Position numbers and translations under genes: made by a program
Notes under the pieces: model-generated
The model's database searches: none
Seen by the model: the letters and a program-made list of their open reading frames with translations, nothing else
Told to the model about the DNA's origin: nothing
Part shown: piece by piece, positions 24,781-64,000 of the stretch
Numbering within the stretch: position 1 is the stretch's first letter
How the letters are laid out: every line of letters starts with the position of its first letter
From: Bacillota bacterium
GTDB lineage: Bacteria > Bacillota > UBA994
DNA length: 64,000 nucleotides
Reading direction: 5' to 3'
Assembly: GCA_018333655.1 (NCBI GenBank)
Contig: JAGXTJ010000008.1
Coordinates: forward strand, 62,001 to 126,000

Positions 24781-26232
24781 CTAGCTATGCGAATTGAGGT
24801 AGTCAGCCAGAGAGATAAACATCCCTTTCTCTGGCACCGCAAAATAAGGTTGTCGCGTAAAGGTAGTGTACTCAATCCGCCTGAGATAGGCAGACAAGAT
24901 CCAGATAGACATGAGCAGAGCAATTAAGGCGGATAAAAACAAGCCGAGCCCCAAGTAAGCCGAGCCTAGGGGTATAAATGCGGCGGTCAAAACAAGATTG
25001 GCCACGAAGAACACCGCTGCAACCAGTAAGGCCTCTAATCGTGCTTCGAAGTATAGCAGCATGAGGAGCACTACAAGCATTATCGCATTACATATCGCAG
25101 CAAGCGCAGTTATGCGAAAGACGTCTACGAGCAGCACCGAAAACCCGAGCGCTACAAATAGGGAATTGGACAGCACCAAGACTGTGAAGGTGATGAGTAC
25201 TTGTCGTTCCAGCAAGTAGACAATGTGGCGGTAAGCGAGCTGGACCATGACCTGTCTTGCAGCCACTATTTCCGCAAGGCTAGCCCCACCACGTATCGCC
25301 TGAAAGTAAGTCTTGAATTTATCGTAAAACTCAGTCTCGACGTATACCAAAAACAGGACAGAAGTCGGAATAATTGTCAAGTAAGCAAGAAATTTAGCAT
25401 GATCATAATGGAGAGCAAAGCGATAGGTGCCATAGATAAGGCCGCCGTACTCCGAATTCCAGATCAAGATGGTGTCAATCCAAGTGGCCAAGGTGTAAAA
25501 GAGCCCTATAAAGAATAGACTGCCCACTTTGTTCAGGTACCTGAGAAAATCAAATTCGTAGTTGTTGCCAAAAGTAAAGATTACCAAGAAGGTACGCACC
25601 AGCAGTAACAGAGTTACCGCTAAACCCACCACGTAGGCCAAGAGCATGTTGCTAGCGTAAAGATGCAGAGGAAAGTGAATCGGCTTGGCAAACAACAAGA
25701 AACTGAGGGCCACTGTTACCACTCCACCCCATATGAAGGACCGAGCTATTGCAAGGTAGTCTTTGGCCGCACTCATGTATACCATAAGAATCCATGTCAA
25801 GGTCAAGATCAGAAATAGTGACGCCGCCATGAAAATATAGTAGCTCGGCAGAGGCGTCCGGAGGTAGAAAATAGCCTGCGCCACAAAGGCCAACGTGAAA
25901 ACAATCTTGCTGACACCCATGAGAGAAGGCTTAATATAGTCGTACTCCTTATGGAATAATCTGTCTGCTATATAGCGCGTGGCGACAAATTGCCATGGCG
26001 CTGTTATAATTTGGCTGAAAATAAAGCTATACACTATGGTGCTCATAAACAATAATCTATCGGAGGGTGCCATAATGTAGCGTTCAGCCACTAGCAAAAG
26101 AATGTTGACGACCAGTACAGCCGACAGCCAAGGGCCGGCGGCCACGAGGGAAGAAAAGGCATAGGCCCTAAATCTGTCGCTAAACGTGTCCTTGTAAAAC
26201 AATCTCTTCAGTGTAAAACCAATTCCAGCCAT
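24781..26232 (-). CDS. pelG: PelG-like exopolysaccharide flippase
   Basis: Polytopic membrane protein (about 12 helices) of the MOP/PST-like PelG family, which moves Pel polysaccharide across the membrane. The opening MAGIGFTLKRLF and the aromatic second block (RAYAFSSLVAAGPWLS) are typical. The ATG at 26232 has AGGAGGAATATAAG before it and gives 483 residues; an upstream ATG at 26280 is less likely. Last gene of the pel operon, 62 bp after pelF. PelD, PelE and PelG together are known to form the inner-membrane synthase complex with PelF in Pseudomonas and Bacillus. Confidence 0.88.
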   Translation of the reverse strand: MAGIGFTLKRLFYKDTFSDRFRAYAFSSLVAAGPWLSAVLVVNILLLVAERYIMAPSDRLLFMSTIVYSFIFSQIITAPWQFVATRYIADRLFHKEYDYIKPSLMGVSKIVFTLAFVAQAIFYLRTPLPSYYIFMAASLFLILTLTWILMVYMSAAKDYLAIARSFIWGGVVTVALSFLLFAKPIHFPLHLYASNMLLAYVVGLAVTLLLLVRTFLVIFTFGNNYEFDFLRYLNKVGSLFFIGLFYTLATWIDTILIWNSEYGGLIYGTYRFALHYDHAKFLAYLTIIPTSVLFLVYVETEFYDKFKTYFQAIRGGASLAEIVAARQVMVQLAYRHIVYLLERQVLITFTVLVLSNSLFVALGFSVLLVDVFRITALAAICNAIMLVVLLMLLYFEARLEALLVAAVFFVANLVLTAAFIPLGSAYLGLGLFLSALIALLMSIWILSAYLRRIEYTTFTRQPYFAVPEKGMFISLADYLNSHS

Positions 26233-26294
26233 CTTATATTCCTCCTGCGACCAATTTAACAGTGCAAGGGCATCCTGCAAGAGCAGATCTCTGT

Positions 26295-27710
26295 CTATAT
26301 GCCGAAACTCTCGTAAGCTTGTCGGTAACTGTTGATGAATTGTTCTTGATTGTAAAACTGCTCCACCCTTTGCCGCGCGTTACTACCCATCTCTCTCCTT
26401 AAGGCATGATCAGTGAGCAGGCGAATGGTTGCTTGAGCCGTATCTTCCGGTGAAACCTGAGGGACTATAATCCCTGCAGGGCCGATGCCTTCACCGGGCC
26501 GACCGAGCAAAAGTTCGCTGCAGGAGCCAACATCGGTGGCCACAAAGGGTAGTCCCGCAGCCATGCCCTCGAGCATAACAAGCGGTTGCGCCTCAGAGAG
26601 AGAGGTTAGAAGTAGCACATCAAGCCGCGGCAAGTAATCCCTTATGTCGACATGCCCGGTAAAGACTACTCTATCCGTGAGCAACAGTAAATCAACTAGC
26701 TGCTTGCATTCCAAGTAGTACGCCAAATCTTCTTCACCGCTGCCAATAATGAATAGTGTTGTGCCGGGGAGCTCGCTACTTATAATTTTGAAGGCGCGGA
26801 TTAGTGTTTTGACATCTTTGATGGGAACTACACGCAAGACAGCTCCTATATTCTGCCTACTATCCCAGCTAGAGCGCTCAGCAAACCTTGTTGTATCGAC
26901 TCCATTGGGAATCACCCTCGTCTGAGACGCCGGCGCACCTAGCTCCAACTGAATGTCGCGATTGCGATTAAACAGGGAAATTATCATGTCTGCGCTTTTG
27001 TACACCCCAGTGGACATGGCGTAGAAGTAGCTAATCCAGATTTTTTTGAAGTCCGGAGCGACCCAACTTGCGTTAATGATTTCTTCCTCCCGTTCACGCG
27101 CATAAATGCCGTGCTCAGTGAGAATTAAAGGCTTGGAGTACTTGAATTTATACACCAGACCCATTAGCCCCGCATAGCCAGTTGAAAGGGCATGATAGGC
27201 GTCTGCGCGCGGTCCCTGCTGCTGTATAAGCGTTAGTAGCGGCACATACATGGACACCAAAGACCAAAAGTGCCGATTAAAGTCCTTCGTGGCATGTCCG
27301 TCGCTGTAGGTACGAAGTAAGTACTCCCAAAAAAAATCGCTCTTCAGGAACTCGACCGAGGTGCCAACTTTCGCGATGTTTGCCAAAGTAGTAACGGCCA
27401 ACTCCCAATTTGTATCGCTGCCAAAAGTCAGGAAACCCTCCACAGCCAGCCTCTCTTGGGTTGATAGTCGAATACTACGACCGCGCTTAGTTGGTGAGAG
27501 CAGCATGAAGTCTTCGAGAAATAAGGTGGTTAGCTCCGTAACATTACTCGGCGGTCGATACTTAAGCGAGGGGAGTGTTGAGCGGCTAGGCATGATGGAG
27601 ATAATCTTAAATTTCTTTTCCGGCAAATGTGTCATCAACTGCTGCGTCCAACTGGACAATCCGCCCGTAGTATAGGGGTAGGACCCCTCCAAAATCAAAG
27701 CTACTTCCAT
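26295..27710 (-). CDS. pelF: PelF-like GT4 glycosyltransferase
   Basis: Cytosolic glycosyltransferase that polymerises Pel from a UDP-amino-sugar. It has the PelF-type N-terminal DUF3492 region (EVALILEGSYPYTTGGLSSW, residues 2-21). The GT4 C-terminal half follows, with PNGVDTTRF near 270, the IIGSGEEDLAY segment, and SEAQPLVMLEGMAAGLPFVATDVGSC containing the E-x7-E donor-site motif (split here by description only). The ATG at 27710 sits after GGGAGGG and overlaps the end of the upstream pelE by 10 bp, so translation is coupled. 471 residues, normal length. Confidence 0.9.
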   Translation of the reverse strand: MEVALILEGSYPYTTGGLSSWTQQLMTHLPEKKFKIISIMPSRSTLPSLKYRPPSNVTELTTLFLEDFMLLSPTKRGRSIRLSTQERLAVEGFLTFGSDTNWELAVTTLANIAKVGTSVEFLKSDFFWEYLLRTYSDGHATKDFNRHFWSLVSMYVPLLTLIQQQGPRADAYHALSTGYAGLMGLVYKFKYSKPLILTEHGIYAREREEEIINASWVAPDFKKIWISYFYAMSTGVYKSADMIISLFNRNRDIQLELGAPASQTRVIPNGVDTTRFAERSSWDSRQNIGAVLRVVPIKDVKTLIRAFKIISSELPGTTLFIIGSGEEDLAYYLECKQLVDLLLLTDRVVFTGHVDIRDYLPRLDVLLLTSLSEAQPLVMLEGMAAGLPFVATDVGSCSELLLGRPGEGIGPAGIIVPQVSPEDTAQATIRLLTDHALRREMGSNARQRVEQFYNQEQFINSYRQAYESFGI

Positions 27711-28690
27711 GTTTTTCCCTCCCCTAGCCAATACTCCACCATCGGCTGGTAGTCCGTAGGCACAGACCAACCCGCCTCCCTAATATTACTGGCGACTTCT
27801 GCCACTTGCTTGAAATTGCCCTGCAAGAATTCTAGCCGCATTTGGACGAGCAGGGGAAAGGGTTGCAGAGGAAAGCTCGTAGCGATTTCCGGTAGGATCT
27901 GCCGGGCCTCGTCATACTTGGCCTGCTCCACTAAGGTGTTAAGCAGTTTCAGCGCCACCTCATAATTTTGTGGCCATAACTTTTTGCCTTCCCAGAGCAG
28001 GGACAAATATTCTTTGGCAAATTCGCGCCTGACTGCTAACGCCATAAGGCCAGAATGAATATAACGGTCATAAGCGTCAATTAGCGGGAGCAGTAATTCA
28101 GGGTCTCGCACTGCCTTCTCCTTTAGTCCCTGGATCTCCTTTTCGCAGCCATCGCTAAGAGCCGCCATCATGGCGGCAGCGTAATGACGCACCTCAGGGT
28201 CGGAGTCACGGAGAGCCTTGCTTAAAACCGCTACCTGATGGGGCAGATCCTGTTCCTTAGACCCAATAATAAAGTCTTTTTTGCGAGTGGGGCTGGTCAA
28301 GTGCATGACATCCTGACCCGTCAAGGTATTAATGTCTGTCTGTACATCGCCAGCACTGAGCGGTCGAAGGCCTTGTGCCAGCTGTAAAGCTTCGATGTAT
28401 TTCTGGTATTCACGCAATTGCTCGCTCTCGCTAGCTCTGCGTCTGTTCCAGTGCATAGCCCAGCAAAGAAGCAGCGGACCGATGCCCGGCCATAAAAAGG
28501 CCATGTAGAGCAGGGCCGAAACGACCGATAGTTTGGCTACCGCGGATAACCACCAAATTATTGCCACCATCGCTCCATTGATGGCGAACAGAAAAAATGG
28601 CGATATGCGTTGCCAATATAGAGCCTGGACTAGGGCCGATAAGCTCACCAAAACACATACTGCTGCTACACAGTAATAGATGATTTTCAC
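27701..28690 (-). CDS. pelE: PelE-like membrane/TPR protein
   Basis: Two to three N-terminal membrane segments (residues 1-85) are followed by a helical repeat region of about 240 residues. The repeats have HEAT-like (DPEVRHYAAAMMAAL) and TPR-like segments. That layout and its place next to pelF match PelE, a scaffold of the Pel synthase complex; sequence identity in this family is usually low. GTG at 28690 follows AGGTGG with 5-nt spacing; GTG at 28699 is the alternative. It follows the deacetylase gene with no gap and overlaps pelF. Confidence 0.75.
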   Translation of the reverse strand: MKIIYYCVAAVCVLVSLSALVQALYWQRISPFFLFAINGAMVAIIWWLSAVAKLSVVSALLYMAFLWPGIGPLLLCWAMHWNRRRASESEQLREYQKYIEALQLAQGLRPLSAGDVQTDINTLTGQDVMHLTSPTRKKDFIIGSKEQDLPHQVAVLSKALRDSDPEVRHYAAAMMAALSDGCEKEIQGLKEKAVRDPELLLPLIDAYDRYIHSGLMALAVRREFAKEYLSLLWEGKKLWPQNYEVALKLLNTLVEQAKYDEARQILPEIATSFPLQPFPLLVQMRLEFLQGNFKQVAEVASNIREAGWSVPTDYQPMVEYWLGEGKTWK

Positions 28691-28699
28691 ACAAACCAC

Positions 28700-30529
28700 C
28701 TACCTCGTCAAAATTCGCACTTGCCCAGCAAGTCCTTGGATGAGATAGATATTGTTCTCCTGACAAAAGAGTTGAAATGTGCCGCCTTCGACGCGCAGTA
28801 TGCTCTGCCCCTTGAGCCTGAGGAAATGATACACCGGGGTCACTTCTCTACTGTAGTTGATGGTGATCTCTCCCGGACGAGAGTTAGTGTAAACACCCAA
28901 ATTCTCCGTCTTAACAAAGTAAGCGTAGGCCTCCGTCAAGGTCATAGGCCTGAGAAAGGGGAAGAGGCGGCGTATATCAGCAAACAAGGAGTTAATTTGG
29001 CGATCCATCGCCTCCCAGGACAAGCCGCGGGATCGAACCTCGTCGAGTACATCGTCAGGGTGAACAAAATGATGCACCAAGCCATAGTGCGCCACGGCAT
29101 TGTAGAGGGCCCAACGCACATTGTCATCGGGGAGGTACCCAGCAGAAAAGCGCGGAAAACTTACTACTTCGGGCACATAAGGATCGCGCCCGAACTCTTG
29201 CAGCAGGAGCCCAAGTTCGGGCTCACCGGTGTAAAGTCCGGCAAACACCCTGATATCAGGGAAAACGCTCTTTACAGCCAATCTACCCTCGCGCGAAACA
29301 ATATTGGAGGGCGGCACGTAACTAAAGATGCGTAGCTCACCGTATAGCTCCCTGATGACCTGCGCTAACATGCGCAGACCCTCTTCCATCGTCTGCTGTG
29401 AGTCCCAGGGCGTGTAGCCGTAATCAGCAAACGACATTTGCCCTTCTAAAGCTAAGGATTGATGGTTGTAGCCATGTATGCCAAGCTCACCACCCGACTC
29501 CAGCAACCTGCGACCAAAGTACGCCCATTGCTGCTTAGTTACATCATAAGGTAGGTCTAAGGGGCTCTTAGTGTCGGAGTTAAAGGTTAACATCCCGAGT
29601 CCCGTCAACTTCAAATTAAAGCGCCGAGCGAAATTGTAAGTGTCTGGCCACCATACTTGGCGCATAAATTCAGGCGTGGTCATAAAGTAATCCTTAAATA
29701 TTCTGTCATGCCGACCAAGGCTAGTAGGGGCAGGAAAATCATCGATGTTGACGATGATGCCGTTAAATATGGTGGTCAGGAAGTGCTTGGGAAGGAAAGC
29801 TATGGACTGCAGGAGTAGGCCACGATTTTTTTTGGCTTGGAACATAGTGGAATTAACATACAGAACCTGCCCCTCGCCATAAATGGCCGTCCATATAAGT
29901 GGTCTGGCGTCGTCAGCAGTGGCTAGCAAAGTGACGTCTTCCCGCACTTCTACATCTAAAAGTGACTGCACGAAACCGGAAAGTGCCGTGGTATCAAGGC
30001 CCGGAAACATATGTGCGACCAAGTTTATACCAATGGCATCTTTCACTGAAAAACCACGATTTTGGGTTATCCCCACCACTGCATCAAGCGCGGGAATAGG
30101 GCTCCTTATTAAGAAAACGCTATTTCCGCCTCCATAGGTAAAATCAATAATGGCCCGGACAAGGTTGTCGTCGACAAGCAATTCCGTGGCTACCACTAGC
30201 AAGTCCACATTGCGCAGGGATAGAACCCTAGCGCTAGCCTCTTCGCTTTGCACATGAACATACTTGGCCTCTATCTTCGCCATCCGCAAAGTATGATACA
30301 CGTTTTCCCGCAACAACTGTGAGCCCACATCTTCATCTGCATAGAGAACAATGACCTGCTCGTAGCTATCGGGCACAGGAAGTTCAGACGGCAGCGCACT
30401 CGTGTCCACTGCTAGTGCTTGCCCTTCTGCTACCCAACTGATCCAAAACATATCAGCTGTGCGCGCTAGTTGCACAGCTAGCCCGGCTACTATCACCATA
30501 ACGATAAGAAAGGCCAGCTTCCTAAACAT
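28700..30529 (-). CDS. PelA-deacetylase-like DUF2194 protein
   Basis: A 609-residue exported protein with an N-terminal signal anchor (residues 4-22), a flavodoxin-like or glutamine-amidotransferase-like middle region (about 50-250), and a polysaccharide-deacetylase-like C-terminal half. The metal-site candidates are the Asp pair in VNIDDFPAP (about 256) and the His pair in GIHGYNHQSL (about 355). In Gram-positive pel operons this is the protein usually labelled PelA_DA, which partly deacetylates Pel outside the cell. There is no hydrolase domain as in Pseudomonas PelA. It overlaps pelD by 8 bp and precedes pelE. Confidence 0.82.
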   Translation of the reverse strand: MFRKLAFLIVMVIVAGLAVQLARTADMFWISWVAEGQALAVDTSALPSELPVPDSYEQVIVLYADEDVGSQLLRENVYHTLRMAKIEAKYVHVQSEEASARVLSLRNVDLLVVATELLVDDNLVRAIIDFTYGGGNSVFLIRSPIPALDAVVGITQNRGFSVKDAIGINLVAHMFPGLDTTALSGFVQSLLDVEVREDVTLLATADDARPLIWTAIYGEGQVLYVNSTMFQAKKNRGLLLQSIAFLPKHFLTTIFNGIIVNIDDFPAPTSLGRHDRIFKDYFMTTPEFMRQVWWPDTYNFARRFNLKLTGLGMLTFNSDTKSPLDLPYDVTKQQWAYFGRRLLESGGELGIHGYNHQSLALEGQMSFADYGYTPWDSQQTMEEGLRMLAQVIRELYGELRIFSYVPPSNIVSREGRLAVKSVFPDIRVFAGLYTGEPELGLLLQEFGRDPYVPEVVSFPRFSAGYLPDDNVRWALYNAVAHYGLVHHFVHPDDVLDEVRSRGLSWEAMDRQINSLFADIRRLFPFLRPMTLTEAYAYFVKTENLGVYTNSRPGEITINYSREVTPVYHFLRLKGQSILRVEGGTFQLFCQENNIYLIQGLAGQVRILTR

Positions 30530-31799
30530 GGCAACTCTCTACCGTCAGATCAGTTATCGGGTGAAGCGCGCCGGCAATCCTTGCTACAATCTTTTCTAAG
30601 ACCTCACACGAAGTGATAGGAAAAAGAATATGCAGTTCGTTGTTTAAAACATCAAAGCCCACCGCGTCAACCTGTCTGATCAAACCTTGCAACTTCACAC
30701 TCAACTGCTCTAAGGAGTGACTACCAACTGGCACACGTACTAGCCCAAAAGGCAGGCCAAATTTGCTGAAACGCAGCTTTTCTTCTTCGACGCGAAAAGT
30801 AAAATTCTCCCAATTTCTAATGATGGTATTCGGGAGGTACGCATCCTTTTCGACAATATGCTCTATTTCTAAAGCCCGCGTCAGCGCTTTAGAAATCCAT
30901 TCGACAATTATCTTAAAGAGATTGTAGGAGTACTCGGTCACCATGGTGATATCTGCCTCTTCTACGTTGATAACGGCAATGGCCTTGCCGTCTTTTAAGA
31001 TGGGCGCCGACAAGAGAGGGTCTGTCGCCGCACTGTCGCCCGTAACTTTGACCACCTTCAGTTCCTGGACGACATCCCTCAAGTAGGCGTGCTCATCAAC
31101 TCGCAACGAAACTTGCATCCGCTCGTTGTCCCCCATGTGAACCTTAAGACGCAAGTAGCGCGAGTCTGTATCTACCAAGTAGATGCCCACCGATTTAACT
31201 TTAAGGAATCTCGCCAGCAACGTCATAATTTCGGTGTAAACTCGCTCAGAGTGCAAGGAATCGAGCGCTGTAGCTACTTCATACAAAGAAAGAATGCTGT
31301 CTTCAGCCCCGATAATCTGCTTCTTCAGTTCTGCCGCCACAAATTGTGACTTACGCTCAGCCTCGCTCAAATCTGTCAAGGCATTTTTTGTCTCGAAGAG
31401 CTCGTCTTGCAGCCTGTCAATCATAAAATCGGCCCTGTCTTTAGAGCTCCCCAGAATTACAGCTGCCAGGAAGAACATCAAAATAAACTTGTAGTGACTC
31501 CACTCCAAGACAAAGAGAACGAGGTCTCTCCCTAGGAGATGGTAGGCGTAGACAAAAGTCGCGCTAGCGAAAACTGCACTCAAAATCCCTAGATAGTTCC
31601 CATAGCGAAGCGACATCAAGGATACAAGAATTAAGAGCGGGTGAATATTCATAGTAATAAATGCTGCCCGCAAGGGGTTAAAGTGAAAAAACAGCAAGAA
31701 GATAGCCGCATTTAAGACGATGTTCTCCGCTATACAGTACCATAGGCGATCTCTACGCTCACTGCGATAGGCCCTGCTATTCCACTCCAGCGCCCTCAT
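30522..31799 (-). CDS. pelD: PelD-like c-di-GMP receptor (TM-GAF-degenerate GGDEF)
   Basis: First gene of the pel operon. Residues about 20-110 contain four membrane helices. A coiled-coil linker follows, then a GAF domain (about 165-300) and a C-terminal GGDEF-like fold. The active-site GGDEF is lost (aligned segment VLNNEL), but the c-di-GMP inhibitory site RxxD is kept as Arg375-Gln-Val-Asp378. This is exactly the PelD hallmark: a receptor rather than a cyclase. So Pel synthesis here should be switched on by c-di-GMP binding. GGGAGG lies 12 bases before the ATG. 425 residues, near the usual ~450. Confidence 0.87.
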   Translation of the reverse strand: MRALEWNSRAYRSERRDRLWYCIAENIVLNAAIFLLFFHFNPLRAAFITMNIHPLLILVSLMSLRYGNYLGILSAVFASATFVYAYHLLGRDLVLFVLEWSHYKFILMFFLAAVILGSSKDRADFMIDRLQDELFETKNALTDLSEAERKSQFVAAELKKQIIGAEDSILSLYEVATALDSLHSERVYTEIMTLLARFLKVKSVGIYLVDTDSRYLRLKVHMGDNERMQVSLRVDEHAYLRDVVQELKVVKVTGDSAATDPLLSAPILKDGKAIAVINVEEADITMVTEYSYNLFKIIVEWISKALTRALEIEHIVEKDAYLPNTIIRNWENFTFRVEEEKLRFSKFGLPFGLVRVPVGSHSLEQLSVKLQGLIRQVDAVGFDVLNNELHILFPITSCEVLEKIVARIAGALHPITDLTVESCHV

Positions 31800-31874: not shown

Positions 31875-31981
31875 CACATACTTGCAATTTTGTGTACCAC
31901 CATAATCCGGTTAAGATGAATGCTATGAATAATATACGCGTTTTCTGGACTCTTATCTAGTTAGCTTGGCGCACTGCAGTG

Positions 31982-32035
31982 AAGGCCTCCCCGCATTATA
32001 GTCTCGCAGCGGAGACAAATGTGCGGGAAGGCCTT
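31982..32035. terminator. Branched hairpin downstream of thiC
   Basis: Outer stem AAGGCCT/AGGCCTT plus CCCGCA/TGCGGG, with an inner hairpin GTCTC/GAGAC. A TTTT follows only on the plus strand, so for thiC it may act as a 3'-end-stabilising or weak terminator structure. Confidence 0.5.
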
Positions 32036-32070
32036 TTCTCTTATAAATCAATCCCTTACCCAGCCGCCAT

Positions 32071-33375
32071 CTAGCCTTGGCAGGGTAAGGCCTGCCGCGC
32101 TACATACTCGCCGCTAACCTTGTAAGCACAGAACTGCCCGCACATGGTACAACAGTTTTCACCCTGCGGGTTTTTCTCTTGCCGCAGCCGTCTCGCCAGC
32201 GCGGGGTCAATAGCGAGCATAATCTGCGCCTCCCAGTCGAGAGCTTTGCGGGCCGTGGCCATTTTGTCATCCCATTCTTTGGCCCGCGAGACACCCTTAG
32301 CGATGTCGGCGGCATGTGCGGCGATGCGCGCGGCCATGACACCGGCATGCACATCGTCTAGACTGGGCAAGCCTAGATGCTCCGCAGGGGTGACGTAGCA
32401 GAGAAAGTCGGCACCATGCGAGGCGGCCAAGGCCCCGCCGATAGCCGCGACAATATGGTCATAACCTGGAGCGATATCCGTCACCAGCGGGCCAAGGACA
32501 TAAAAGGGAGCGTCATGACAGAGCAGTTTCGCCAATTTGACATTACTCTCTACTTGGTCTAAGGGCACATGGCCAGGGCCTTCTACCAGTACTTGCACCC
32601 CCGCGTGACGTGCGCGTTTAACCAAGCTGCCTAAGTTTATCAATTCGGCGACTTGGGCGGCGTCCGTGGCATCGGCTAGACAGCCCGGGCGCAGTCCGTC
32701 CCCTAGACTAAGGGTGACGTCGTACTGCCGCGCTAGGTCGAGCAAGCGGTCAAACTCCGCAAACAGCGGGTTTTGCCGACCATTGTGCATCATCCAGGCT
32801 GCCAAGAATGAGCCCCCGCGCGAAACAATATCTAAAAGCCGCCCCGTAGCCAGCAGCGTGTCCACCACTTCTTGTGTAACGCCGCAGTGCACCGTAATAA
32901 AGTCGGCCCCATCTCGGCAATGCTCTGCAATGGCGGCAAAGAAGTCCTCGCTCGTAATTTCGCCTAGGCCTTTCCCCTCTTTTTGCGCTTCAACCATGAC
33001 TTGGTACACGGGAACGGTGCCCACCATCACCGTACTAGCGGCAATGATTTCTCGGCGTACCATAGCGATATCGCCGCCGGTGCTTAAATCCATGACCGCA
33101 TGCGCCCCCGCCGCAATAGCCGCGCCTAGTTTAGCGAGCTCTGGCGTTGCGTGGGGATAAGCCTCTGATGTACCGATATTCGCGTTGACTTTGGTCGTCA
33201 AACCTTTACCTACGGCCATGGGCGTGAGGTGGGGGTGATTTTTATTGGCAGGTAGGACCACTTCTCCAGAAGCGATCCGCCCCCGCAATTCTTCGCCAGT
33301 AATCCCCTCTAGCGCTGCGGCCAGTTCCATTTCTCGCGTTACGATGCCTTGACGAGCCCATTCTAACTGAGTCAA
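32071..33375 (-). CDS. thiC: Phosphomethylpyrimidine synthase
   Basis: Radical-SAM enzyme that rearranges AIR to HMP-P, the pyrimidine half of thiamine. Conserved blocks are VNANIGTSEAYPH, DLSTGGD, the GGSFLAAWM region, SLGDGLRPGC, VEGPGHVPLD and the C-terminal cluster motif CCTMCGQFC that binds the 4Fe-4S cluster. At 434 residues it is the short, anaerobe-type ThiC lacking the N-terminal extension of proteobacterial forms. It overlaps thiE by 4 bp and is last in the thi operon. Confidence 0.96.
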   Translation of the reverse strand: MTQLEWARQGIVTREMELAAALEGITGEELRGRIASGEVVLPANKNHPHLTPMAVGKGLTTKVNANIGTSEAYPHATPELAKLGAAIAAGAHAVMDLSTGGDIAMVRREIIAASTVMVGTVPVYQVMVEAQKEGKGLGEITSEDFFAAIAEHCRDGADFITVHCGVTQEVVDTLLATGRLLDIVSRGGSFLAAWMMHNGRQNPLFAEFDRLLDLARQYDVTLSLGDGLRPGCLADATDAAQVAELINLGSLVKRARHAGVQVLVEGPGHVPLDQVESNVKLAKLLCHDAPFYVLGPLVTDIAPGYDHIVAAIGGALAASHGADFLCYVTPAEHLGLPSLDDVHAGVMAARIAAHAADIAKGVSRAKEWDDKMATARKALDWEAQIMLAIDPALARRLRQEKNPQGENCCTMCGQFCAYKVSGEYVARQALPCQG

Positions 33376-34019
33376 TTTACTTCCTCCTTATCTGCCCACA
33401 CTTGCCTAAGCCCTAGGGCAGCCCCTCTAATGTCTCTTGCGCCGAGGATAGCCTTAGCGACACAGATGCCATCTGCACCTGTATCTCGCACCTGCGGCGC
33501 ATTCGCCGCGGTGATACCCCCTATGGCCACCACCGGAATCAACAGCGCTTGCTTAATGACCCGTAACTGCAAGAGTGAAACGCTGCGTACATTTTCTTTG
33601 GTGGTCGTCGGAAACATGGCCCCTACCCCAATGTAGTCCGCACCCTGCCGCTCTGCCTGTAGAGCTTCGTCAAAGTTAGCTGCGGATATACCGAGCAGCT
33701 TACCCGCACCGAGCACCTCTCGCGCGGCTCTCGCTGGCAGGTCGTCTTGCCCAAGATGCACCCCGTCCGCATCCACCGCTAGGGCGATATCTAGCCGATC
33801 GTTGATGATGAGGGGTACGCGTCGTGCCCGAGTCAAGGCACTAAGAGCCAGAGCGAGTTCATAAAAGTTACGCCCACAAAGGCTTTTTTCTCTGAGCTGA
33901 ACCATGGTGACGCCACCGTCTATCGCCTCGCCCACAGAGGACAAAAAATCCCTACCTGCCAGTAGCCCCGTATCGGTCACGAGGTAGAGTGTGCAGTCGA
34001 AGGCCTTATCTCTGCGCAT
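33372..34019 (-). CDS. thiE: Thiamine-phosphate synthase
   Basis: Joins HMP-PP and HET-P to thiamine phosphate. TIM-barrel blocks seen are LYLVTDTG, MVQLREKSL, LIINDRLDIALAVDADGVHLGQDDLP, GISAANFDEA, YIGVGAMFPTTTKE and VAIGGI. The ATG at 34019 gives the normal 215 residues and overlaps thiM by 14 bp; a longer form from 34073 would run through thiM. Confidence 0.95.
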   Translation of the reverse strand: MRRDKAFDCTLYLVTDTGLLAGRDFLSSVGEAIDGGVTMVQLREKSLCGRNFYELALALSALTRARRVPLIINDRLDIALAVDADGVHLGQDDLPARAAREVLGAGKLLGISAANFDEALQAERQGADYIGVGAMFPTTTKENVRSVSLLQLRVIKQALLIPVVAIGGITAANAPQVRDTGADGICVAKAILGARDIRGAALGLRQVWADKEEVN

Positions 34020-34818
34020 GAATTTTGGCCCCGCTTTGTAAGTCGGTATGGGTGAATTTGCCGACATAGTCAATAATATGTGTTCTATACGACCCCAAAT
34101 TGCTTAAACCACTTTCTCGCGCGGCATACTCACCCGCCAGCCCCATACTGACCAAGGCTGCGGCTGTGGCGAGCAGGTAATCGTCTGTTACTCCAACGGC
34201 AGCCCCCACGAGAGCTGAAGCCATGCAGCCCGTGCCGGTAATCTTCGCCATCAACGGGTGGCCATTGCTGCACACCAATGTAGTGCGCCCATCAGTGATA
34301 ATGTCATGTTCCCCCGTGATGGCCACCACACATTGCTCTGACACTGCCAAGGCACTGCCAAACAGAAGCGTGCCGCTTTGCACACCCCCCGCATCTACCC
34401 CCCGTGTTACCGCCTCTTCCCCTGCTAGAACAGCAATTTCCGAGGCATTGCCGCGAATGACAGCCAGTTTTACCTGCGACATAATTTCTTGGGCTGTCTT
34501 AGTGCGCAAAGTAGTCGCACCTACTCCTACTGGATCTAGCACCACGGGGATACCACGCTCATTGGCTGCTCGGCCTGCCAAGAGCATGGCCGCGACAGTG
34601 CGTGAGTTTAAAGTGCCAATATTGAGGACCAGCGCGGAGGCTATACCTACCATCTCCTGCACTTCCTCGAGGTCATCTGCCATAACAGGTGCCCCGCCGT
34701 AGGCGAGAACAATGTTGGCACAGTCATTGACGCTGACATAGTTAGTGATCTGATGTACTAGTGGTCTCTGCCCCCGCACTTTGGCTACGATTTCTGCCAG
34801 ACGGCAAACTACTTCCAT
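34006..34818 (-). CDS. thiM: Hydroxyethylthiazole kinase
   Basis: Salvage kinase that phosphorylates the thiazole alcohol (THZ). Typical ThiM features: PLVHQITNYVSVNDCANI at residues 20-37, VLDPVGVGAT, VIRGNASEI and the ATP/anion-hole block KITGTGCMASAL with its catalytic Cys. 270 residues. No thiazole-synthesis genes (thiG/S/F/H) are nearby, so the organism may depend on thiazole salvage or have them elsewhere. Confidence 0.96.
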   Translation of the reverse strand: MEVVCRLAEIVAKVRGQRPLVHQITNYVSVNDCANIVLAYGGAPVMADDLEEVQEMVGIASALVLNIGTLNSRTVAAMLLAGRAANERGIPVVLDPVGVGATTLRTKTAQEIMSQVKLAVIRGNASEIAVLAGEEAVTRGVDAGGVQSGTLLFGSALAVSEQCVVAITGEHDIITDGRTTLVCSNGHPLMAKITGTGCMASALVGAAVGVTDDYLLATAAALVSMGLAGEYAARESGLSNLGSYRTHIIDYVGKFTHTDLQSGAKIHAQR

Positions 34819-34821
34819 GGG

Positions 34822-35649
34822 TCACTCCTCCTCAACCTTGGGTGAAATGTTAAGCCCGGCTCGCTCATACAGCTCATAGAAATGATGAGTGGGCCCGACG
34901 CCTTTCCCTAGCGGGAATGCATGCTCTATGGCCACAGAAATATAGGCCTTAGCTAGTCTAACAGCCTCTCGAAGCGTGGCCCCCCTCGCTAACTGCGCCG
35001 CGATAGCGGCGGAGAGCGTGCAACCTGTGCCATGAGTATGCACTGTAGCTAGGCGGGTGGAAGTAAAGTGGCTTACCCTCTCGCCATCGTAGAGTACATC
35101 GACGGCCTCGCCGACTAAATGTCCCCCCTTAACTAAGGCCGCGCGCGCACCACGGGCCACAAGGTGTCGCGCCGCCTGTTCCATCTCGTCCAAGGTGGCA
35201 ATAGGGCGGCCGGCAATGGCCTCGGCCTCCGGAATATTGGGCGTCACCAGGTCGGCGAGCGGCAGGAGCAGAGCAACTAACGCTTCCTTGGCCTCGCTCT
35301 GCAACAACTGATACCCGCTCTTAGAGATCATCACCGGGTCTATAACTAAGTTCACGGGGCCATACCTTGGCAGGGCGTCCGCCAAAGCGATGATCGTCTC
35401 GCGACGTGAAACCATGCCGATTTTCACAGCATGCACTGGGATGTCGGAATAGATGGCGTCAAGTTGTGCCAAGATCAGCGAGGGGGCAATATCTTGCACT
35501 GCGAAAACCCCGCAAGTGTTTTGCGCCGTCACAGCGGTGAGCACACTCATGCCATAAACGCCCTGCGCGGCAAAGGTCTTAAGATCAGCCTGGATGCCCG
35601 CCCCACCACTAGAGTCTGAGCCGGCGATAGTGAGAGCGGTGCGCATCAT
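34822..35649 (-). CDS. thiD: Bifunctional hydroxymethylpyrimidine kinase / HMP-phosphate kinase
   Basis: Converts HMP to HMP-PP in two steps. It opens with [21 protein letters not shown] (described in parts), has [11 protein letters not shown] near 110 and the ATP-site [15 protein letters not shown] near 210. 275 residues. It overlaps thiW by 4 bp and lies 3 bp from thiM. Confidence 0.96.
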
Positions 35650-36146
35650 GCCCGACCACTTAAGCCGAATTTTTTAAATACACTCATCTTGAGAGCCGAG
35701 AGCAAAGCGTAGCCCGTCGCACCACCGAGCAGGCTGCTCAGCAAAAAAGGCACCACAAATACAAGGGCGGCAACATCCCTGCCGAGCAGGATTTTGGCCA
35801 CGGGGAAAGCGACGAGAGCGCCGAGTACACCAGTGCCGAAGACCTCTCCTAACACCGCTTTACCAGCACACTTCGTCCGCTGGTAAACTAAGGCCGCCAC
35901 GAATGCGCCGATCATGCTACCGGGGAAGGCTAGTAGCGACCCTGTGCCGAGTAGATTGCGCAAAAGCGACACCGTAAAGGCTGTAAGAACGCCATGTACG
36001 GGGCCGAGCAGCACTGCCGCCACCACATTGATGGCGTGTTGCACCGGGAATAGCCTTGCCCCCGCGAAGGGGATAACTACCCCTGTGGCCGCCACAGTGC
36101 CTACCGCAGCCAGTACTGCAGCTAGGGTGAGCTTTTTAAGATCCAT
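35646..36146 (-). CDS. thiW: ThiW, S-component of an ECF thiazole transporter
   Basis: A small five- to six-helix membrane protein (166 residues) that supplies substrate specificity to an energy-coupling-factor transporter. ThiW is assigned to the thiazole precursor because it recurs with thiM, as here. Markers are [17 protein letters not shown] and [25 protein letters not shown] precedes the ATG at 36146. First gene behind the TPP riboswitch. The shared ECF module (EcfA/A'/T) is not in this window. Confidence 0.92.
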
Positions 36147-36177
36147 CTCGTTTCCTCCTTTTCTTTGGCAAGCAAAT

Positions 36178-36206
36178 AGACGAGCAAGGCGGAAGGCCGT
36201 GCTCGT
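36178..36206 (-). terminator. Riboswitch expression-platform terminator candidate
   Basis: An 11-bp stem with one mismatch built on GACGAGCA / TGCTCGTC, located between the TPP aptamer and thiW. The T-tract after it is short (TATTTG), so attenuation by another fold is possible. Confidence 0.55.
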
Positions 36207-36223
36207 CAAAAAAGCAGTTCATG

Positions 36224-36316
36224 CACTTCCCTACGCTGGCATTACCCAGATCAGGTTAAAGGGTCAAAGAACTCCTAGGTTCTTTATCTCAGCCGGCCTC
36301 TCCAGCTCCCCTGCTC
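36224..36316 (-). promoter_or_regulatory. TPP riboswitch (THI element)
   Basis: On the minus strand the leader contains, in order, GGGGAGCTGG, the CTGAGA box, ACCCTTTAACCTGATCTGGG and TAATGCCAGCGTAGGGAA, the fixed landmarks of the TPP aptamer. It controls thiW-thiD-thiM-thiE-thiC by sensing thiamine diphosphate. A -10-like TATAAG lies upstream at 36345-36340. Confidence 0.95.
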
Positions 36317-36424
36317 ACTATTCACTTGTCTCCTAGCTACTTATACTAAGGTAAACTGACGCGAAACACAAGCACAACTCTACCCGGCAATTCGCCCACG
36401 TTAGCCCCTGGCGACAACGGGCTC

Positions 36425-44130: not shown

Positions 44131-45621
44131 TTAACGGGCGGAGAAATCAATTGAACTTGACAAGAAGAGGAAGTAATGGTTGTACGTCCCCCGCGGTGTA
44201 GTCAAGTTAGAAAGAGTAACTGGACCGCCAGCCATATCCATGAGTATCCCCTCGAGGGTAATTAAGTCCACGCGCCCCATTGTCTGACCATTGAGTACCG
44301 CCATAGCGTACTCAACCCCGGCTTCGACGTAGAGCATATTGACGGGCACCGGCCAAGTGGAAACGCGCTTGTCGGCATTAACGCGGCGCAGGGCGTCCCT
44401 AATCAAGCCAATAACAAAGGGCAGATCCCCTTGTCTTGCCTGTGGGATAGAGAGGCCTAGTGCTCCAGGTAGAGCGTGGTAGGGAGACGGGCAGCACTGC
44501 TCGGGGAAGATCGCTCCGCCAGCAATGACTTGCCTAATCATGGGTTCCATCATGCTGCAGTTCGTGCCAAAGAATGCTGTGGCGGTGCCAAACTGGGCAA
44601 TGCGGCGGGGAACATCTTCCATAATGAACTGCTGAGTTCCTGGTACGCCGCCCTCGCCTGTGGGGTCTGGGGAGTCGACAAAGACAAATCTCATGCCGAG
44701 GCGATTAGCTGTCTGCTCCATAAGCTGCCTACGCTCAAATAGCATGGCGTTGGCCATATGACGGGCAAAGGAGTAGTGCACGAAGGTTGTGGCACCCATG
44801 CGGTGCGCCTGCTCTACGATCGTTCTGCCGCGAGACATATCATCGGTCTGCAAGACGATGTCGGCGCGGGCGGCGATGACGTCGCGGTCCTCGCCAGGAG
44901 TACCGGCAATAATAAGCATATCGGGACGCAGTCTGCGCACTTCGTCAATGCCGGCAGCAGTACCGACCACGGCCTGCACAATGACAATGGCGCGTACGCT
45001 TCTATCGGCAGCGAGGGCGCGAAGATTAGAGATAGTTGTCTCCGTCTCAGTTGTAAAACGAGCAGGGTATGTAGAGAGCACAATGCGATCGCCGTACTTG
45101 CGCTTCATGTTTTCAGCAGCGCGTAGTTCTTCTTCATTTTGTACGGCGGTGCCCGTCATGACCCCAATTCTAAAGGTGCCGGGCGGGGCGGGTCCCCTAA
45201 CTACTACGGTTTGATGGCGCTCAACCCAGTTTACGGCGGCCCCGAGCGTCTCCGACACGAAACGCAGCGGCACCATGGTGCGCCCGTTCATAACGGTGGG
45301 GGCAACATCGAGAGTGCGGGGCTGCCCGTTGACCGTGGCATTACGGCTGCCGATAACTAACGACACCGTGGTGCCAGCCCGAGTTCCCGTCACTGTGCTG
45401 GTGGCTTCGGCCCAACCGACGCTCGCTCCTAGCCCTTCAAACAAAGCCCTAAAGGGTACGAGCACCCTGCCTCCACTGATAACCGGCGGAACCTGCAAAT
45501 TGAGGAATTCGCCATCTAGCATCACGCGGATGGCCGATGCCTCTGACACTTGCATGTTCGGTACTAAGAACCCGACTGCCAGCAAGGCGACTACAGAAGC
45601 GATTATTGCTACTTTCTTCAC
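44131..45621 (-). CDS. DUF3798 substrate-binding protein with N-terminal copper-amine-oxidase-N 'stalk' domain
   Basis: Exported protein of 496 residues. A signal peptide (1-27) is followed by a Cu_amine_oxidN1-type stalk domain (about 30-145: RVLVPFRALFEGLG ... TMVPLRFVSETLGA). The rest is DUF3798-like (FRIGVMTGTAVQNEEELRAAE to the C-terminus), with a periplasmic-binding-protein fold (DMLIIAGTPGEDRDV, VHYSFARHMAN, AFFGTNCSMMEP). The stalk probably tethers the binder to the cell wall, replacing a lipid anchor; no lipobox is present. GTG at 45621 follows GGGGAGGG. It heads the four-gene importer operon. Ligand unknown. Confidence 0.82.
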   Translation of the reverse strand: MKKVAIIASVVALLAVGFLVPNMQVSEASAIRVMLDGEFLNLQVPPVISGGRVLVPFRALFEGLGASVGWAEATSTVTGTRAGTTVSLVIGSRNATVNGQPRTLDVAPTVMNGRTMVPLRFVSETLGAAVNWVERHQTVVVRGPAPPGTFRIGVMTGTAVQNEEELRAAENMKRKYGDRIVLSTYPARFTTETETTISNLRALAADRSVRAIVIVQAVVGTAAGIDEVRRLRPDMLIIAGTPGEDRDVIAARADIVLQTDDMSRGRTIVEQAHRMGATTFVHYSFARHMANAMLFERRQLMEQTANRLGMRFVFVDSPDPTGEGGVPGTQQFIMEDVPRRIAQFGTATAFFGTNCSMMEPMIRQVIAGGAIFPEQCCPSPYHALPGALGLSIPQARQGDLPFVIGLIRDALRRVNADKRVSTWPVPVNMLYVEAGVEYAMAVLNGQTMGRVDLITLEGILMDMAGGPVTLSNLTTPRGTYNHYFLFLSSSIDFSAR

Positions 45622-45955
45622 TAAACTTACCCTCCCCTTAGTTCTTCCCACTAGTGAAATGACTCTGCCTCCCCCAGAACATGGTGCGAGCGCATCCCCC
45701 CCCCTAAAATCTCCCCCATCTTGGTGCTTGAAGTCGCGCCTGTGGGCTGAACATTTGCGCATGTGGTACAATGTGTACTATTCAGAATTAAAAGCAATAT
45801 TCCTGCTTGCTAGACACAGTTTCGCGACTTTTTTTATTGGCCCAGACTTTTATTGCTGCTTCCCTCTTTGCCCCCGCGAACTCCGACCGCTACCCTTGCC
45901 CGAGAAAAAGATTTCGGCTATGCTGAGCACAGAAACACGCGAGAGGAGAATTTAC
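45622..45955. other. 334-bp divergent intergenic region
   Basis: Holds the leaders of the minus-strand DUF3798 operon and the plus-strand ACT-type gene. A run of nine C at about 45696-45705 and a TACAAT hexamer at 45767-45772 (no good -35) are the only features noticed. No gene or conserved RNA was recognised. Confidence 0.4.
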
Positions 45956-63580: not shown

Positions 63581-64000
63581 CTAGTTTGCTGCCTCTTCCT
63601 CGGCATAGACAGCGCAGAACAATTCGACGAGCTCGGGGTCAAACTGTGTGCCCGCACATCTCTTTAATTCTGCTAGAGCCTGCCCTGCCGGCAGGGCACT
63701 GCGATACGGGCGATCATTCGTCATCGCATCAAAGGCGTCGACAATAGCCACGATTCGGCATTGCAGGGGTATGTCTGCCCCTTTAAGCCCCAAGGGGTAG
63801 CCTTCGCCGTCCCACCGCTCCTGATGTTTTAGAATATACTCGGCGACAGGAGCGAGCTCCGGCGAGGCGATGGCAATGCGGTACCCAATCTCACTATGGC
63901 GCTCCATCTCTAAACGCTCGCTAGGCGAAAGTCGCCCGGGCTTACTAAGTATGCTGTCGGCAACACCCACTTTGCCAATGTCATGAAACCGCGCAAAGAG
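63581..64000 (-). CDS. HD-GYP domain phosphodiesterase, truncated by window end
   Basis: The C-terminal ~140 residues of an HD-GYP protein; the frame stays open to base 64000, so the start and any sensor domain lie outside. HDIGK is at the window edge, then HSEIGYRIA, HQERWDGEGYP (the GYP motif) and VDAFDAMTNDRPYR. This domain hydrolyses cyclic-di-GMP, which connects it to the PelD receptor 32 kb away. The sequence ends in a Glu-rich tail. Confidence 0.9.
   Translation of the reverse strand, partial: LFARFHDIGKVGVADSILSKPGRLSPSERLEMERHSEIGYRIAIASPELAPVAEYILKHQERWDGEGYPLGLKGADIPLQCRIVAIVDAFDAMTNDRPYRSALPAGQALAELKRCAGTQFDPELVELFCAVYAEEEAAN

What the first reader, a model, noticed from the sequence alone, without database searches (positions are those of the whole stretch)
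24781..31799. Complete Gram-positive Pel exopolysaccharide locus
pelD, a PelA-deacetylase-like DUF2194 protein, pelE, pelF and pelG are present as one overlapping operon. There is no outer-membrane pelB/C, which matches the Gram-positive variant. It predicts c-di-GMP-controlled biofilm matrix in a probable anaerobe, and the linked HD-GYP at the window end could tune it.
Basis: partly seen in the sequence, partly recalled or inferred. Interest (0 to 1): 0.65.

Follow-up and report, generated by a model that had tools for sequence, protein, structure and literature searches.

The report
Ordinary Pel biofilm-polymer operon, swapped order
This stretch is a complete five-gene set for making and exporting the sticky biofilm sugar Pel under control of the signal c-di-GMP; the kind is known, and only the order of two genes and the range of relatives are mildly unusual.

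Summary
The finding is right. Minus-strand 31799-24781 holds five tightly packed genes: pelD, pelADA (DUF2194), pelE, pelF, pelG. PelF and PelG match curated models. The DUF2194 protein matches the solved, biochemically proven Bacillus cereus Pel de-N-acetylase PelADA (PDB 9ZAU, E=4e-76) with every catalytic residue kept. PelD has no significant Pfam/NCBIfam match, but its predicted fold has Pseudomonas aeruginosa PelD as best PDB match (E=3e-9). It keeps the c-di-GMP site R375-x-x-D378 + R407 at exactly the B. cereus spacing. The host has no Omp85, so it is very probably monoderm, fitting the absence of pelB/C; it has galE and nine GGDEF domains. In a sister genus a diguanylate cyclase gene directly follows pelG. 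The proposed link to the HD-GYP at the window end is unsupported: it is a GGDEF-HD-GYP protein 31.8 kb away. Two modest additions: the order D-ADA-E-F-G differs from the published D-E-ADA-F-G and is shared by a supported branch (Tepidibacter, Peptoclostridium, Fusobacteria, Mcinerneyibacterium, a diderm Firmicute); and this module is therefore not specific to Gram-positives. No PelA-type hydrolase is encoded. New member of a known kind; low interest.

The parts
30522..31799 (-). pelD, 425 aa: N-terminal membrane helices, coiled coil, GAF, degenerate GGDEF with I-site R375xxD378 and R407; no N-terminal epimerase domain
   Evidence: Foldseek best hits P. aeruginosa PelD 4ETZ/4EU0 (E=3e-9); profile hits PelD chains E=0.004 and GGDEF domains E=2e-5; R375 and D378 invariant, R407 at least 90% in 20 PelDs
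28700..30529 (-). pelADA (DUF2194; CE26 + CBM114), 609 aa: one N-terminal membrane helix, polysaccharide de-N-acetylase
   Evidence: PF09960 E=2e-100; PDB 9ZAU E=4e-76; catalytic D263, D264, H352, H356, P407, R460, H490, D493 all present
27701..28699 (-). pelE, 332 aa (GTG start): N-terminal membrane helices plus TPR-like helical solenoid
   Evidence: profile relatives in the pelE position of about 80 pel loci; model with TPR fold matches, E about 3e-3
26295..27710 (-). pelF, 471 aa GT4 glycosyltransferase, EX7E motif E373/E381
   Evidence: NCBIfam NF038011 E=4.8e-113; DUF3492 E=3e-75; motif
24781..26232 (-). pelG, 483 aa multi-pass membrane transporter
   Evidence: PF16933 PelG E=2e-127; about 13 hydrophobic segments
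31980..32036 (-). strong hairpin (14-bp stem) after thiC that probably separates the pel operon from the thiamine operon
   Evidence: fold of the intergenic stretch, z=-2.4; no typical T-run, so its role is inferred

Best explanation
A c-di-GMP-controlled Pel operon of the Gram-positive (PelADA) type in an uncultured, probably monoderm Firmicute. Inferred mechanism, by homology with B. cereus and P. aeruginosa: GalE makes UDP-GalNAc; c-di-GMP binds the I-site of PelD; PelD, with the scaffold PelE, switches on the glycosyltransferase PelF; PelF polymerises alpha-1,4-GalNAc; PelG passes the chain through the single membrane; membrane-tethered PelADA partly deacetylates the emerging polymer, making it cationic. 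Shown here: gene content, order, homology, folds and active-site residues. Not shown: expression, polymer identity, c-di-GMP binding.
For: PelF equivalog hit; PelG and DUF2194 hits; PelADA matches 9ZAU with all catalytic residues (residues from PMC13254593). PelD fold = P. aeruginosa PelD. I-site R375/D378/R407 has the same +3/+29 spacing as B. cereus R363/D366/R395, whose mutation abolishes biofilm (PMC7112168), and is conserved in 20 PelDs. PelE = membrane helices + TPR solenoid. Host: galE, nine GGDEF domains, no Omp85. Sister genus has a GGEEF cyclase with RxxD directly after pelG.
Against: No PelA-hydrolase (GH114-type) gene in the genome or its class. The operon is missing from two same-genus and four other same-family genomes, so it is dispensable. 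PelD scores poorly by sequence alone. Polymer chemistry of divergent Gram-positive loci is unproven, as the survey's authors note (PMC7112194).
Confidence: 0.9

Rival explanations
1. The operon makes a related but different amino-sugar polymer (other UDP-HexNAc or other linkage) with the same machinery.
For: Loci this divergent (about 37-55% identity over PelADA+PelF+PelG to the nearest named relatives) have no chemically solved product; the authors of the survey warn of this; no dedicated galE or hydrolase gene adjoins the operon.
Against: PelF is well inside the PelF equivalog model and PelADA keeps the complete active site of a GalNAc-polymer deacetylase; galE is elsewhere in the genome.
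Confidence: 0.12
2. The locus is a decaying or silent island, present in one genome of the genus and kept by chance.
For: Absent from same-genus genomes G001 and G002 and from four others of the family.
Against: All five frames are intact with ribosome-binding-like sites and overlapping starts; catalytic and I-site residues are all kept; a syntenic copy is in sister genus G006.
Confidence: 0.05
3. The window-end HD-GYP protein is the dedicated regulator of this operon.
For: Same contig and strand; it has both GGDEF and HD-GYP domains.
Against: 31.8 kb and many unrelated genes away; one of nine GGDEF domains in the genome; a cyclase adjoins pelG only in the sister genus.
Confidence: 0.08

Closest known systems
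Bacillus cereus ATCC 10987 pelDEADAFG (Whitfield et al. 2020, PMC7112168; PelADA structure PMC13254593)
   Same: Same five core proteins; stand-alone PelADA of DUF2194/CE26 type with identical catalytic residues; PelD without epimerase domain, with I-site of identical spacing; no pelB/C
   Different: pelADA lies before pelE; no GH114-type PelAH hydrolase found in the genome; galE not adjacent
Pseudomonas aeruginosa pelABCDEFG
   Same: PelD fold, PelF, PelG, PelE-like scaffold, deacetylation step
   Different: No PelB, PelC or hydrolase domain; deacetylase is CE26-type stand-alone, not the CE21 domain of PelA
Tepidibacter / Peptoclostridium / G128 (Omp85-bearing Firmicute) / Fusobacteria pel loci (L043, L045, L046, L038, L050, L110)
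   Same: Same unusual order D-ADA-E-F-G; about 45% identity for the clostridial ones
   Different: Some belong to diderms; L110 and L047 also carry a GH114 gene next to a small protein with an outer-membrane-like C-terminus

Membership tests
Gram-positive Pel operon (pelDEADAFG) | PelF and PelG homologues side by side | tested here: met
Gram-positive Pel operon (pelDEADAFG) | Stand-alone membrane-anchored PelADA with intact CE26 catalytic residues | tested here: met
   9ZAU E=4e-76; D263 D264 H352 H356 P407 R460 H490 D493
Gram-positive Pel operon (pelDEADAFG) | PelD with membrane helices, GAF and degenerate GGDEF carrying an RxxD I-site | tested here: met
Gram-positive Pel operon (pelDEADAFG) | PelE: membrane helices plus TPR scaffold | tested here: met
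   profile relatives in B. cereus-order loci; TPR-like model, weak fold scores
Gram-positive Pel operon (pelDEADAFG) | Gene order D-E-ADA-F-G, described as conserved (incidental rather than functional) | tested here: not met
   order here is D-ADA-E-F-G; canonical order. A syntenic variation, not a missing component
Gram-positive Pel operon (pelDEADAFG) | No pelB/pelC; host without outer membrane | tested here: met
   none adjoins the operon; no Omp85 in genome. Single-marker test
Gram-positive Pel operon (pelDEADAFG) | Product is Pel; c-di-GMP binding required | not testable with these tools
   needs WFL staining, PelAh digestion, ITC
P. aeruginosa-type pelABCDEFG | Outer-membrane PelB/PelC and two-domain PelA | tested here: not met
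   no such genes at the locus; no GH114 in genome

The most novel reading that the evidence does not exclude
The window belongs to a separate, phylum-crossing branch of Pel operons (order D-ADA-E-F-G, PelD without epimerase) that works in both monoderms and diderms. In its diderm members no PelB/PelC is seen beside it, so the polymer must cross the outer membrane through other proteins, such as the coiled-coil or TPR beta-barrel-like proteins next to pel in Negativicutes-like genomes and Fusobacteria.
Probability: 0.35. Interest if true: 0.45.

Novelty: new member of a known kind. Interest (0 to 1): 0.2.

Why it matters
It extends experimentally grounded Pel biosynthesis to an uncultured Firmicute family and ties the anonymous family DUF2194 (PF09960) to the solved PelADA enzyme, so DUF2194 entries next to pelF/pelG can be renamed. 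The comparison also shows that the PelADA type of operon is not a Gram-positive trait, which raises a testable question about export in diderms.

Tried and rejected
Single-sequence search of PelD against the PDB found only noise. The first profile (A2) was swamped by the epimerase domain of long PelDs, so it was rebuilt from short PelDs. No c-di-GMP riboswitch lies before pelD. Promoter-like matches barely exceed shuffles (11 against 8.0 +/- 2.7). The idea that pel is read through from the TPP-riboswitch thiamine operon was set aside because a strong hairpin follows thiC. The apparent pelE loss in the Dethiobacter MAG (L039/L041) was rejected as a real variant: PelADA's C-terminus and PelF's N-terminus are cut there too, pointing to a deletion or misassembly. 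The 2021 Pel review (PMC7890745) is not held, so a prior description of this gene order elsewhere cannot be excluded.

Full report
What is there. Minus-strand 31799-24781 holds five open frames with overlaps of 8 and 10 nt, one direct junction and one 62-nt gap. Order: pelD, pelADA, pelE, pelF, pelG. Upstream, on the same strand, is thiC of a thiamine operon headed by a TPP riboswitch at 36210-36322. Downstream is a convergent histone-deacetylase-family gene.

PelF and PelG are certain. PelF passes the NCBIfam PelF equivalog cut-off nearly fourfold (378.8 bits against 100, E=4.8e-113) and keeps the EX7E motif (E373/E381). PelG matches PF16933 end to end, E=2e-127.

The DUF2194 protein is PelADA. 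It matches PF09960 (E=2e-100). The only PDB match is 9ZAU, E=4e-76, which is B. cereus PelADA, shown to deacetylate alpha-1,4-GalNAc oligomers and to be essential for Pel (PMC13254593). Numbering the chain from D262 puts every catalytic residue named in the paper (D262, D263, H350, H354, P405, R458, H488, D491) at the expected place. The window protein has all of them: D263, D264, H352, H356, P407, R460, H490, D493. Only two papers in the held library mention DUF2194; the one read does so in a table of Fusobacterium transcripts, not in a Pel context.

PelD needed more than HMM libraries. Pfam and NCBIfam give only weak GAF matches. A profile of 20 short PelDs finds GGDEF domains (E=2e-5) and P. 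aeruginosa PelD chains (E=0.004). An AlphaFold2 model (mean pLDDT 84) has P. aeruginosa PelD 4ETZ/4EU0 as its best PDB matches, E=3e-9; overall TM-scores are low (0.27-0.39), presumably because the domains are oriented differently, so this rests on local structure. R375 and D378 are invariant and R407 is at least 90% conserved in the 20 sequences. Their spacing (+3, +29) equals that of B. cereus R363/D366/R395, whose alanine mutants lose biofilm. There is no GGDEF catalytic motif at the expected place, so the domain is a receptor rather than a cyclase.

PelE is supported by position and by profile similarity to the PelE-position protein in B. cereus-order loci. Its model shows membrane helices followed by a TPR-like solenoid; the fold matches are weak (E about 3e-3).

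Host. The genome (2.2 Mb, 97% complete) has no Omp85, nor do 14 relatives of its genus, family and class, while Omp85 rings in seven control genomes: very probably monoderm, on one marker. It has galE (464.6 bits, on another contig), nine GGDEF domains, one PilZ protein and no GH114/PelAH-type hydrolase. pelG is absent from two same-genus and four other same-family genomes. Sister genus G006 (matching the MAG Firmicutes bacterium UBA994, L106) has ADA-E-F-G in the same order, and there a cyclase gene with RTED and GGEEF starts 46 nt after pelG. That is better context for c-di-GMP control than the window-end HD-GYP, which belongs to a 711-aa PAS-GGDEF-HD-GYP protein 31.8 kb away.

Comparison. 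Gene order was read in about 90 loci with profiles built here. Of 82 with PelADA, PelF and PelG, 63 have D-E-ADA-F-G, the order Whitfield et al. describe as conserved, and 12 have D-ADA-E-F-G like the window. In a FastTree of the three concatenated proteins the latter, with two rearranged Spirochaetia loci and two exceptions discussed next, fall in one branch with support 0.98; the clostridial core has 0.997. The order is not strictly locked: an Alkaliphilus MAG (L042), grouped with the window with support 1.0, has D-E-ADA with ADA and F in one frame; the Dethiobacter MAG L041 lacks pelE through an apparent deletion. The sample is biased, because loci were found from the window's own PelADA and the best 80 kept.

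Not only Gram-positive. Carriers include Fusobacteria, Spirochaetia, Mcinerneyibacterium, Verrucomicrobia and Victivallales records, and Firmicute G128 with two Omp85 matches and the window's order. No outer-membrane gene is evident in the 20 kb around pel in G128. In the Negativicutes-like genomes a 700-1200-aa coiled-coil protein with a barrel-like C-terminus follows pelG; one also has a TPR plus porin-like protein. Fusobacterial and Mcinerneyibacterium loci have small proteins with aromatic, barrel-like C-termini that match no Pfam family. These are leads, not tests. A Fusobacterium nucleatum operon that includes pelG is already noted in the literature as responsive to putrescine (PMC12826042).

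Verdict. An ordinary, complete PelADA-type Pel operon with a swapped pelADA/pelE order. Steps shown: composition, homology, residues, folds. Steps inferred: polymer, export, c-di-GMP control.

Noticed in passing
L031 2072-5656, L035 12211-14355, L036 4045-6249, L037 4074-6329: In Negativicutes-like, Omp85-bearing genomes a 700-1200-aa protein with an N-terminal coiled coil and an outer-membrane-like C-terminus follows pelG directly; it matches no Pfam family (L036 copy tested) and could replace PelB.
   Followed up: partly
L140 1135-2046 (G006:C30): In sister genus G006 a 303-aa diguanylate cyclase with GGEEF and RxxD starts 46 nt after pelG.
   Followed up: yes
L042 9992-13285: Alkaliphilus MAG: PelADA and PelF read as a single 1097-aa frame; fusion or missing stop not resolved.
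   Followed up: no
L064, L066, L078, L090, L099 and other Paenibacillus-type loci: PelG frames of about 1030-1180 aa, roughly 550 aa longer than PelG, suggesting a C-terminal fusion with a neighbouring function (perhaps the CotH-like protein).
   Followed up: no
L040 11478-13187: A divergent pel-like locus (G227) whose DUF2194 protein lacks the HxxxH metal motif, so probably a non-catalytic PelADA.
   Followed up: no
window 36210-36322 and 32071-36209: TPP riboswitch heading a thiamine operon that ends just upstream of pelD on the same strand, with a strong hairpin between them.
   Followed up: partly
L138 181-2316 (reaches into window 63581-64000): The HD-GYP fragment at the window end is the C-terminus of a 711-aa PAS-GGDEF-HD-GYP protein with both motifs apparently intact.
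   Followed up: yes
window 44131-45771: DUF3798 protein with a copper amine oxidase N-terminal domain beside ABC transporter and permease genes; looks like a solute-binding uptake system.
   Followed up: no
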